A stretch of 64,000 nucleotides of DNA from Bacteroidales bacterium (GTDB lineage: Bacteria > Bacteroidota > Bacteroidia > Bacteroidales > Paludibacteraceae). This document shows positions 31,907 through 34,962 of the stretch, one piece after another. How positions within the stretch are numbered: position 1 is the stretch's first letter; the number at the start of each line of letters is the position of its first letter. The DNA lies in contig SUWZ01000012.1 of the NCBI GenBank assembly GCA_015061185.1, positions 1 to 64,000 on the forward strand, written 5' to 3'. Both the position numbers and the translations under genes were made by a program. The notes beneath the pieces are model-generated. The model was given only the letters and a program-made list of their open reading frames with translations, had not been told where the DNA came from and did not search any database.

Positions 31907-32185
31907 TTATGGTCTCAGACAGCCAATAGGCACGACATGTACTCCGTCTGCACGACGAGTGGCAAATTTACCGCCTGTAAGAATCATTAATAAATCTGGT
32001 TCGCGAATAGGATTCTGTTTTTCCGTCCGATTATGTTCAATAATAAGCTTCTTCAGTTGCAACAAATGTTTTGCACCCTCTTCAATTTCGTTACTACCTA
32101 ACTTACATTCAATCAATGCATATCTACCATCCGACAAATGTAATACCACATCTGCCTCTAAATCATAGCGATCATTTATTCGGTG
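31907..32185 (-). pseudogene. C-terminal fragment of AAA ATPase/DUF4143 protein
   Basis: NDRYDLEADVVLHLSDGRYALIECKLGSNEIEEGAKHLLQLKKLI with no upstream ATPase domain. Confidence 0.75.
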
Positions 32186-32682: not shown

Positions 32683-32815
32683 GATTTTTCTCACTCCTTC
32701 CGTCCGGATTATATAATTTTATAGGATTCCGCAAACAATAAATGTATGGACTTTTATCCCCCCCAAAAAAAAAATTTAAAAAAAATCTAAAAAAATATTG
32801 CAGAAAAAAAAAGTA

Positions 32816-32828
32816 TCTCTACCTTTGC
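32816..32828 (+). promoter_or_regulatory. Probable -7 promoter element of the phe operon
   Basis: TCTACCTTTGCAA (TAnnTTTG) ~30 bp before leader ORF. Confidence 0.6.
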
Positions 32829-32857
32829 AACGTTGAAACAAAAAACGTCAAAAACAA

Positions 32858-32935
32858 ATGAGAAATTTTAATTACACATTCTTTTTCTTCTTTTACTTTT
32901 ACTTTAAGAGTAGAAGCGGGATTGTGTTGTCGTAA
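32858..32935 (+). CDS. Phe leader peptide MRNFNYTFFFFFYFYFKSRSGIVLS
   Basis: 25-aa ORF with 8 Phe and 3 Tyr, followed by attenuator, upstream of prephenate dehydratase. Confidence 0.92.
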   Translation: MRNFNYTFFFFFYFYFKSRSGIVLS

Positions 32936-32961
32936 TTAAACTAAAATAAGTAAAACAATAG

Positions 32962-32988
32962 GTCCCGCAGTAATGTGGGACTTTTTTT
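32962..32988 (+). terminator. Attenuator terminator of phe operon
   Basis: GTCCCGC-AGTAAT-GTGGGAC + T7; upstream GCGGGA (32916-32921) complements TCCCGC as antiterminator. Confidence 0.9.
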
Positions 32989-33000
32989 ATACATAAAAAT

Positions 33001-33843
33001 ATGAAAAGAGTAGCTATACAAGGAATTGCAGGGTCATTCCACGACATCGCAGCAAGAGAGTACTTCAAAGATGAAGAGATTGAAATTGTTCCATGCGAAA
33101 CGTTCGCACAGGTTTTCCAAACTATGAAGAGCGATACATCTCTGATTAGTTTAGTTGCAATCGAAAATACGATTGCAGGAAGTTTACTTCAAAATCATCA
33201 GTTATTGAAAAATAGCGGTCTAAAAATAGCCGGAGAACATAAACTTAGAATTAAACATAACTTAGTTGCCATTGCAGGACAAAGTATTGAGGATATTAAA
33301 GAGGTCTATTCTCACCCGATAGCATTAATGCAATGTGGCGAATTTTTAGGTCAAAACAAAGGGATAAAAGCGATTGAATATGACGATACTGCATCAAGTG
33401 CTAAAATGATTGCAGAACTCAATGAAACGGGGAAAGCTGCCATCTGTGGCGAGGAAGCTGCCCAAATCTACGGATTGGAAATTTTATCCAAAGGAATTGA
33501 GACTAACAAACGTAATTTCACCCGTTTTTTGGTATTGGCAGACCCATGGATGGTGGACGATTTAAATCAAAAAAAACAACCTAACAAAGCAAGTTTGGCT
33601 TTTGTTCTACCGCATGAGGAGGGCAGCTTAGCTCAAATCCTTTCCATCCTCTCTTACTACAAAATGAACCTAACCAAAATTCAATCCATGCCTATAATTG
33701 GTCATGAATGGGAATACGAGTTTTTTGTGGATTTGCGTTTCGAAGATTATTTGCGCTTCAAACAATCATTAGATGCTATCGGCCCCCTAACCAAGGGATT
33801 GACAATTTTAGGGGAGTATCAAGAGGGAAAACAAACTTTATAA
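33001..33843 (+). CDS. pheA: Prephenate dehydratase with C-terminal ACT domain
   Basis: IQGIAGSFHDIAAREYF, VAIENTIAGSL, NFTRFLVLAD, ACT-like LAQILSILSYYKMNLTKIQSMP. Confidence 0.96.
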   Translation: MKRVAIQGIAGSFHDIAAREYFKDEEIEIVPCETFAQVFQTMKSDTSLISLVAIENTIAGSLLQNHQLLKNSGLKIAGEHKLRIKHNLVAIAGQSIEDIKEVYSHPIALMQCGEFLGQNKGIKAIEYDDTASSAKMIAELNETGKAAICGEEAAQIYGLEILSKGIETNKRNFTRFLVLADPWMVDDLNQKKQPNKASLAFVLPHEEGSLAQILSILSYYKMNLTKIQSMPIIGHEWEYEFFVDLRFEDYLRFKQSLDAIGPLTKGLTILGEYQEGKQTL

Positions 33844-33900: not shown

Positions 33901-34962
33901 ATGGATTTAGAAAAATTACAATTAACAGGTGTTGAAGAGAAACGCCCATTGGTAATAGCCGGACCTTGCAGTGCTGAGACAGAAGATCAAGTGATGGAAA
34001 CGGCTAAAGAGTTAGCAAAAAATGGTGTAAAGGTATTTCGTGCAGGAATTTGGAAACCAAGAACCAAACCGGGAGGTTTTGAAGGAAATGGTATTGTGGC
34101 ATTACCTTGGATGCAACAAGTGAAAAAAGAGACAGGTATGTTGACTGCTACAGAGGTTGCTACCGCAAAACATGTTGAAGAGGCCCTAAAACACGATATT
34201 GATTTACTATGGATTGGAGCCAGAACCACTGCAGACCCATTCGCTGTACAAGAGATTGCTGACACTCTTAAAGGTGTGGACATTCCTGTATTGATAAAAA
34301 ATCCGGTTAACCCCGATTTAGAGTTGTGGATTGGAGCTTTGCAACGACTAAATTTTGCCGGCATAAAACGTTTAGGAGCTATCCACAGAGGATTTAGTTC
34401 TTACGACAAAAAATTATATAGAAACCTTCCTCAATGGCATATTCCTATCGAGTTACACAGACGTATTCCGGAATTGCCAATCATCTGCGACCCAAGTCAT
34501 ATTGCCGGAAGAAGAGACCTTATCGCCACTCTTTGTCAACAAGCTATGGACCTACAGTTTGATGGTTTGATTATTGAATCTCACACAGACCCTGACCATG
34601 CTTGGAGTGATGCTTCTCAACAAGTTACTCCTGACGTATTATCACTGATTCTTAACAACTTGGTTATCAGAGAAACAAGTCAAACCACAGAAAACCTATC
34701 GGAACTAAGAAAACAAATCGATGAAATAGACATCAATTTGACAGAGATTCTTGCTAAACGAATGAGAATTTCTAAAGAGATTGGTATCTATAAAAAAGAG
34801 CATGATATGCCTATCCTTCAAACCAGCAGATACGATGAAATCATCCAAAAACGAGTTCAAGAGGGTATGGCAATGGAGATGGGAGAAGAGTTCTTAAAAT
34901 CTATTTTTGAGGCTATCCACTCAGAATCTGTTCGTCAGCAAATGATGATTATCAACAAATAA
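33901..34962 (+). CDS. Bifunctional DAHP synthase/chorismate mutase (type II AroQ fusion)
   Basis: VIAGPCSAETEDQVMETA...KPRTKPGGFEGNG; C-terminal LRKQIDEIDINLTEILAKRMRISKEIG. Confidence 0.96.
   Translation: MDLEKLQLTGVEEKRPLVIAGPCSAETEDQVMETAKELAKNGVKVFRAGIWKPRTKPGGFEGNGIVALPWMQQVKKETGMLTATEVATAKHVEEALKHDIDLLWIGARTTADPFAVQEIADTLKGVDIPVLIKNPVNPDLELWIGALQRLNFAGIKRLGAIHRGFSSYDKKLYRNLPQWHIPIELHRRIPELPIICDPSHIAGRRDLIATLCQQAMDLQFDGLIIESHTDPDHAWSDASQQVTPDVLSLILNNLVIRETSQTTENLSELRKQIDEIDINLTEILAKRMRISKEIGIYKKEHDMPILQTSRYDEIIQKRVQEGMAMEMGEEFLKSIFEAIHSESVRQQMMIINK

What the first reader, a model, noticed from the sequence alone, without database searches (positions are those of the whole stretch)
32816..32990. 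Phe-rich leader peptide with terminator/antiterminator controlling a pheA-DAHP synthase operon
Directly seen: ATG at 32858 encodes MRNFNYTFFFFFYFYFKSRSGIVLS (8 Phe, 3 Tyr in 25 aa). A TAnnTTTG -7 element lies ~30 bp upstream. A terminator GTCCCGC-AGTAAT-GTGGGAC-T7 sits just before pheA. GCGGGA at 32916-32921, inside the leader ORF just after the Phe run, is an exact complement of TCCCGC at 32963-32968, so it can form an antiterminator. This is classical ribosome-mediated attenuation in a phylum where amino-acid attenuators are comparatively little documented; I do not know whether this one is described.
Basis: partly seen in the sequence, partly recalled or inferred. Interest (0 to 1): 0.72.

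Follow-up and report, generated by a model that had tools for sequence, protein, structure and literature searches.

The report
Phe/Tyr leader-peptide switch before pheA
A 25-codon gene packed with phenylalanine and tyrosine codons lets the ribosome act as a gauge that switches the bacterium's phenylalanine-making genes on or off; the switch works like a textbook one, but it is shared by most Bacteroidia relatives that carry this gene and is doubled in series in about one in eight of them.

Summary
The window holds a ribosome-mediated transcription attenuator: Bacteroidota-type promoter, 25-codon leader peptide (8 Phe, 3 Tyr), terminator hairpin with T7, then pheA and DAHP synthase/chorismate mutase. 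Comparative work supports the reading strongly. Of 235 distinct regions upstream of related pheA genes, 214 have a Phe/Tyr-rich ATG leader and 206 leader plus terminator (shuffles 1.3% and 0%). The antiterminator covaries with the terminator arm and starts a near-fixed 11 nt after the last Phe/Tyr codon, just where a stalled ribosome would leave it free. The mechanism is known (E. coli pheA); no Rfam family covers this element, though a structured element before pheA was already noted in Flavobacteriaceae (PMC9723704). The less expected part lies in relatives, not in the window: 29 of 235 loci, in 14 family codes, carry two complete leader-terminator modules in series, each antiterminator preferring its own terminator. 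Nothing has been tested experimentally. Verdict: real; a new, widespread member of a known kind, with a tandem variant in relatives that deserves an experiment.

The parts
32798..32827 (+). Promoter of Bacteroidota type: TTG 32798-32800, 19 nt, TACCTTTG 32820-32827; start of RNA inferred near 32834
   Evidence: Sequence. TAnnTTTG lies a median 33 nt before the leader ATG in 193 of 214 first leaders; 163 also have TTG at the right spacing.
32858..32935 (+). Leader peptide ORF MRNFNYTFFFFFYFYFKSRSGIVLS, 8 Phe and 3 Tyr
   Evidence: Phe/Tyr-rich ATG ORF in 214 of 235 relatives against 1.3% of shuffles.
32879..32905 (+). Regulatory codons 8-16 (FFFFFYFYF), where the ribosome is proposed to stall
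   Evidence: Sequence; distance from the last Phe/Tyr codon to segment 2 is 10 nt here, median 11 nt (quartiles 9-12) in relatives.
32896..32916 (+). Protecting hairpin 1:2: CUUUUAC 32896-32902 with GUAGAAG 32910-32916; longer in the minimum-energy fold
   Evidence: 89.4% of cells paired in 45 relatives, two pairs with changes on both sides.
32916..32922 (+). Segment 2, GCGGGAU, 5' arm of the antiterminator
   Evidence: Pairs with 32962-32968; 95.2% of cells paired, four of seven pairs covary.
32962..32969 (+). Segment 3, GUCCCGCA: 3' arm of the antiterminator and 5' arm of the terminator
32974..32988 (+). Segment 4, UGUGGGAC, and the T7 run: 3' arm of the intrinsic terminator
   Evidence: 99% of cells paired, four of seven pairs covary.
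33001..33843 (+). pheA, prephenate dehydratase, first regulated gene
   Evidence: PF00800, E 1.7e-56.
33901..34962 (+). DAHP synthase/chorismate mutase, second gene, co-transcription inferred
   Evidence: PF00793 and PF01817; follows pheA, directly or after an aminotransferase gene, in most loci with enough downstream sequence.

Best explanation
A ribosome-mediated transcription attenuator controls pheA and the following DAHP synthase/chorismate mutase gene according to charging of tRNA-Phe and probably tRNA-Tyr. RNA polymerase starts near 32834 and a ribosome begins the leader at 32858. (1) Phe/Tyr scarce: the ribosome stalls on codons 8-16; segment 2 (GCGGGAU) lies just beyond its leading edge and pairs with segment 3 before segment 4 is made; no terminator forms and pheA is transcribed. 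(2) Phe/Tyr plentiful: the ribosome runs to the stop codon at 32933 and covers segment 2; segment 3 pairs with segment 4 and transcription ends at the T7 run. (3) Leader not translated: segment 1 (the Phe codons) pairs with segment 2 and the terminator again forms. Shown by sequence and comparison: the ORF, the three helices, their covariation and spacing. Inferred: stalling, coupling of ribosome and polymerase, and the response to the amino acids.
For: Leader plus terminator in 206 of 235 upstream regions against 0% of shuffles. Antiterminator of at least 6 Watson-Crick pairs in 83% of 226 modules against 21% with terminator arms dealt anew. Covariation of antiterminator and terminator, 0 of 500 shuffles reach the score. 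Gap from last Phe/Tyr codon to segment 2 median 11 nt, quartiles 9-12, in leaders of very different length; segment 2 lies within the reach of a ribosome at the stop codon. Computed folds of the three states: antiterminator favoured in 202 of 206 modules when stalled, terminator in 205 of 205 with the ribosome at the stop, terminator in 197 of 206 without ribosome. Leader to terminator identical in the nearest relative while pheA differs by 4%. The gene controlled makes the amino acid encoded.
Against: No expression data. Tight coupling of ribosome and polymerase has not been shown for this phylum in anything I read. 21 of 235 relatives lack a detected ATG leader. The 1:2 helix has weaker covariation. 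The full-length fold always favours the terminator, so the antiterminator must win by timing, as in other attenuators.
Confidence: 0.93

Rival explanations
1. The leader acts through the nascent peptide: the aromatic chain arrests the ribosome in response to free Phe/Tyr or another ligand, as TnaC does, rather than by shortage of charged tRNA.
For: The runs are hydrophobic and aromatic; the same RNA geometry would serve.
Against: Order and number of Phe and Tyr vary freely among relatives and flanking residues are not conserved, which fits codon counting and not a specific peptide.
Confidence: 0.03
2. The terminator is controlled by something other than the ribosome (a tRNA-binding T-box type RNA or a protein), and the leader ORF is incidental.
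For: An intrinsic terminator before a biosynthesis gene is common to several kinds of switch.
Against: No T-box or riboswitch family matches; the Phe/Tyr ORF and its fixed distance to segment 2 are conserved.
Confidence: 0.01
3. The switch is a non-functional relic in this particular organism; pheA is expressed by constant partial read-through.
For: The window and its nearest relative lack the second module that sister species of the genus keep, and the operon is reduced.
Against: 0 differences in 143 nt between the window and its nearest relative, while pheA differs by 4% and about 41% of aligned columns upstream differ.
Confidence: 0.03

Closest known systems
pheA attenuator of enterobacteria (Rfam RF01859 Phe_leader)
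   Same: Phe-rich leader peptide, 1:2, 2:3 and 3:4 helices, terminator before pheA; RF01859 is the best sub-threshold Rfam match and aligns end to end.
   Different: 34.9 bits, below the gathering score of 55; Tyr codons mixed with Phe in relatives; Bacteroidota promoter, no Shine-Dalgarno; monofunctional prephenate dehydratase followed by DAHP synthase.
Bacteroid-trp RNA, RF01692 (PMC2864571)
   Same: Listed as a putative cis-regulatory RNA of Bacteroidetes; from its name and from general knowledge a trp leader-peptide attenuator.
   Different: Different amino acid and operon; no match to the window at gathering score or at E up to 10.
Structured 5' element upstream of pheA in Flavobacteriaceae (PMC9723704)
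   Same: Same gene, same class; the paper reports signs of leader-peptide attenuation at amino-acid operons. Leaders of the same kind appear here in class-level loci such as L246-L265.
   Different: Main text gives no leader sequence, mechanism or distribution for pheA; supplement not readable here.
Tandem attenuators of Salmonella mgtCBR (PMC3641672)
   Same: Two short leader ORFs in one leader mRNA, each an attenuator; relevant to the doubled form in relatives.
   Different: mgtM and mgtP sense different signals (ATP and proline) and the paper contrasts the leader with one that has intrinsic terminators. Here both modules carry Phe/Tyr runs and each has its own intrinsic terminator.

Membership tests
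Ribosome-mediated amino-acid attenuator (general kind) | Short translated ORF rich in codons of the amino acid made by the operon | tested here: met
   8 Phe, 3 Tyr in 25 codons before pheA; conserved in 214 of 235 relatives. Translation itself not shown.
Ribosome-mediated amino-acid attenuator (general kind) | Mutually exclusive antiterminator and intrinsic terminator | tested here: met
   Shared segment 3; covariation of both helices.
Ribosome-mediated amino-acid attenuator (general kind) | Spacing such that a stalled ribosome frees segment 2 and a ribosome at the stop covers it | tested here: met
   Gap median 11 nt; segment 2 roughly -25 to +5 relative to the stop codon; computed states.
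Ribosome-mediated amino-acid attenuator (general kind) | Read-through depends on the amino acid or its charged tRNA | not testable with these tools
   Needs expression data.
Rfam RF01859 Phe_leader | Score at or above Rfam's gathering score (55 bits) | tested here: not met
   34.9 bits, E 1.8e-4, model 1-125 of 125; no hits at gathering score in 12 relatives. Works like it, but is not filed as a member.
Bacteroid-trp RF01692 | Match to the Rfam model | tested here: not met
   No match at gathering score or E up to 10.
Tandem attenuators (relatives only) | Two leader ORFs on one transcript, each with its own terminator and antiterminator | tested here: met
   29 loci; TAnnTTTG within 80 nt before leader 1 in 25 and before leader 2 in none; own terminator arm preferred in 35 of 40; terminators that the scan missed seen on folding in the 8 loci examined. 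Shared transcript is inferred. Not met in the window, which has one module.

The most novel reading that the evidence does not exclude
In Bacteroidia the pheA leader is in many lineages a two-stage device: two Phe/Tyr attenuators with non-interchangeable antiterminators stand in series on one transcript and sense the same amino acids, so that polymerase must pass two ribosome-gated terminators. The single form in the window would have arisen by loss of the second stage. Such same-signal serial ribosome attenuation is not described in the papers I could search.
Probability: 0.55. Interest if true: 0.58.

Novelty: new member of a known kind. Interest (0 to 1): 0.42.

Why it matters
Ribosome-mediated attenuation needs a ribosome that follows the polymerase closely. 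A conserved set of such attenuators in a class whose leaders carry almost no Shine-Dalgarno-like site (2%) makes transcription-translation coupling in Bacteroidota directly testable, including in culturable gut genera such as Parabacteroides and Barnesiella. It also gives a covariance model for an element missing from Rfam, and a natural set of one-stage and two-stage versions of one switch for measuring what a second stage buys.

Tried and rejected
Chance ORF: rejected by shuffles, reverse strands and other windows. Membership in an existing Rfam family: not met. Other attenuators in the window: none found. Other places with this element in the same genome: three weak model hits (E 0.1-0.3); the one read (L267) shows no comparable leader at the hit. 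Link between Phe:Tyr ratio and tyrA in the operon: mean Phe fraction 0.53 with tyrA, 0.60-0.67 without; small, confounded by ancestry, not claimed. A pairing of TTTTACTT 32897-32904 with AAGTAAAA 32948-32955: considered and dropped, not in the predicted folds. The first upstream scan misread minus-strand loci, because genome-search loci are not reoriented; repeated correctly. First covariance-model call failed for a wrong structure length. The 2010 survey by Lopatovskaya and others is not held.

Full report
WHAT IS THERE. The window sequence agrees with the finding at every stated position. A promoter of the Bacteroidota type (TTG 32798-32800, 19 nt, TACCTTTG 32820-32827) is followed by an A-rich stretch and an ATG at 32858. 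The ORF of 25 codons has 8 Phe and 3 Tyr, nine of them together in codons 8-16 (32879-32905). A hairpin GTCCCGCA-GTAA-TGTGGGAC (32962-32981) with seven T lies 12 nt before pheA (33001-33843, PF00800), which is followed by a DAHP synthase/chorismate mutase gene (33901-34962, PF00793+PF01817). GCGGGAU at 32916-32922 is complementary to GUCCCGC at 32962-32968.

THE THIRD HELIX. The Phe-codon strand pairs with the bases that follow it, CUUUUAC 32896-32902 with GUAGAAG 32910-32916, and the hairpin extends over most of the ORF (z = -4.8). This corresponds to segment 1:2 of a classical attenuator. It sequesters segment 2 when no ribosome is present, so that the terminator forms.

IS IT MORE THAN CHANCE. 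Relatives of PheA were sought in the genus, family, order, class and phylum, and 80 named loci were taken from GTDB genomes. After removal of identical upstream regions, 235 loci remained from the searches up to class level. Of these, 214 have an ATG ORF in which at least 6 of 10 consecutive residues are Phe/Tyr, and 206 have such an ORF followed by an intrinsic terminator. Controls: dinucleotide shuffles 1.3% and 0% (n = 705), reverse strands 2.6% and 0%, other 450-nt windows of the same loci 0.8% and 0.04% (n = 2674). Between the window and its closest relative (PheA 97% identical) the 143 nt from the leader ATG to pheA are identical, while pheA differs at 12 of 300 positions and 228 of 561 aligned columns upstream differ. 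Named loci include Parabacteroides distasonis, P. goldsteinii, Barnesiella, Proteiniphilum and many Paludibacteraceae MAGs. Contig lengths tie some of these MAGs to the window's family code, so the window probably comes from an uncultured Paludibacteraceae-like bacterium (inference).

COVARIATION. On a MAFFT alignment of 45 modules, not fitted to any structure, the antiterminator is paired in 95.2% of cells with four of seven pairs changed on both sides (GCGGGA/UCCCGC, GCAGGA/UCCUGC, ACGGGA/UCCCGU); none of 500 shuffles reaches the score and slid versions fall to 31-50%. The terminator is paired in 99% with four of seven pairs changed on both sides. The 1:2 helix is paired in 89.4% with two pairs changed on both sides, so its support is weaker. 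The 45 sequences had been chosen in part for a good antiterminator, so the unselected test matters more: over all 226 modules a complement of at least 6 Watson-Crick pairs exists in 83%, against 21% when the terminator arms are dealt anew among modules.

GEOMETRY. The distance from the last Phe/Tyr codon to segment 2 is nearly fixed: median 11 nt, quartiles 9 and 12 (window 10). This holds whether the leader stops right after the Phe/Tyr run (MQQRYFAYYYFFYFYFRR) or goes on for many codons (MNRFSFTYFFYYFYFSRVKAGVCM). In the central 90% of modules segment 2 starts between 25 nt before and 5 nt after the first base of the stop codon, within the stretch that a ribosome at the stop would cover. Computed folds of the three states agree: antiterminator favoured in 202 of 206 modules when the ribosome stalls and segment 4 is not yet made; terminator favoured in 205 of 205 with the ribosome at the stop; terminator in 197 and segment 2 sequestered in 173 of 206 without a ribosome. 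The fixed gap is, in my view, the strongest single argument that the ribosome is the sensor.

WHAT IS SENSED. The runs mix Phe (25.5% of all leader residues) and Tyr (18.7%). Many relatives have pheA, an aminotransferase, DAHP synthase/chorismate mutase and tyrA in a row, which would supply both amino acids. The window operon has pheA and DAHP synthase only. A search of its 99.98% complete genome with the P. distasonis TyrA found nothing, though an empty answer is weak evidence. Its leader is at the Phe-rich end. Sensing of both amino acids is an inference.

TANDEM FORM IN RELATIVES. In 29 loci two leaders stand in series (a 30th, L034, was set aside as doubtful). TAnnTTTG lies within 80 nt before leader 1 in 25 of them and before leader 2 in none. 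The second ATG usually lies 17-48 nt after the first hairpin (149 in L231). Where the simple scan missed the second terminator, folding shows it in the eight loci examined. The antiterminator region of each module matches its own terminator arm better than the other arm of the same transcript in 35 of 40 comparisons. In eleven order-level representatives, first modules resemble first modules (0.32) and second modules second modules (0.33) far more than first resemble second (0.15). So there the two modules look old, distinct and in fixed order. Tandems occur in 14 of 51 family codes, with at least 16 changes of state on a rough PheA tree. Within the window's genus some species keep both modules, the window and its nearest relative keep only the first kind, and L007/L008 only the second kind.

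DISTRIBUTION. A covariance model of the element finds the window site with 88.5 bits. In 61 genomes of the family it gives hits in 39, nearly all beside pheA, and a second one in some tandem loci; two weak hits lie elsewhere. Of 19 further pheA genes sampled outside the class 18 lack the element. The exception (L334) and three more loci (L299, L301, L314) have a PheA unusually close to the Bacteroidia type, 41-49% identical, which suggests that operon and switch were transferred together (inference).

LIMITS. The survey covers genomes in which a relative of this PheA was found: 127 of 295 in the order, 87 of 290 in the class. Thresholds for leader and terminator are mine. The sequences share ancestry, so counts are not independent trials. 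There are no expression data, and coupling of transcription and translation in this phylum is assumed.

COMPARISON WITH THE KNOWN. The mechanism is that of the E. coli pheA attenuator. Rfam's Phe_leader is the best sub-threshold match and aligns end to end, but at 34.9 bits it misses the gathering score of 55, and no leader family of Rfam reaches its gathering score in 12 relatives. For the phylum, Bacteroid-trp is listed in PMC2864571, and PMC9723704 reports signs of leader-peptide attenuation at amino-acid operons of F. psychrophilum and a conserved 5' element upstream of pheA without an Rfam hit. PMC7366714 mentions leader-like sORFs in B. thetaiotaomicron without naming pheA. PMC3641672 describes tandem attenuators in Salmonella mgtCBR that respond to two different signals. 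A 2010 comparative survey cited in PMC4833913 may already predict Bacteroidetes cases; it could not be read. The window element is therefore a new member of a known kind; the serial, same-signal form in relatives is the part that might be new.

Noticed in passing
L003, L010, L045, L061, L155, L233, L242 and 22 further loci, within about 400 nt upstream of pheA: Two complete Phe/Tyr leader-terminator modules in series, with a promoter element seen only before the first. The window itself has only one.
   Followed up: yes
L299, L301, L314, L334 (other classes of the phylum): Sporadic pheA genes outside the class, unusually close to the Bacteroidia type (41-49% identity), carry the same kind of leader and terminator; most sampled neighbours do not. 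Suggests transfer of operon and switch together.
   Followed up: partly
Whole genome of the window (G000): No TyrA relative was found with the Parabacteroides distasonis protein, and the operon lacks the aminotransferase and tyrA genes seen in relatives; possible tyrosine auxotrophy or a different tyrosine route.
   Followed up: partly
Leaders of 214 loci: Phe codons in the leaders are TTT in 78% against 51% in pheA of the same loci, while Tyr codons show no such excess; may reflect pairing demands of segment 1 or tRNA decoding.
   Followed up: no
window 31907-32149, minus strand: An 80-aa ORF upstream of the leader looks like the C-terminal remnant of a DUF4143-type ATPase (a recalled resemblance, not searched), in a stretch that is poorly conserved in the nearest relative.
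   Followed up: no
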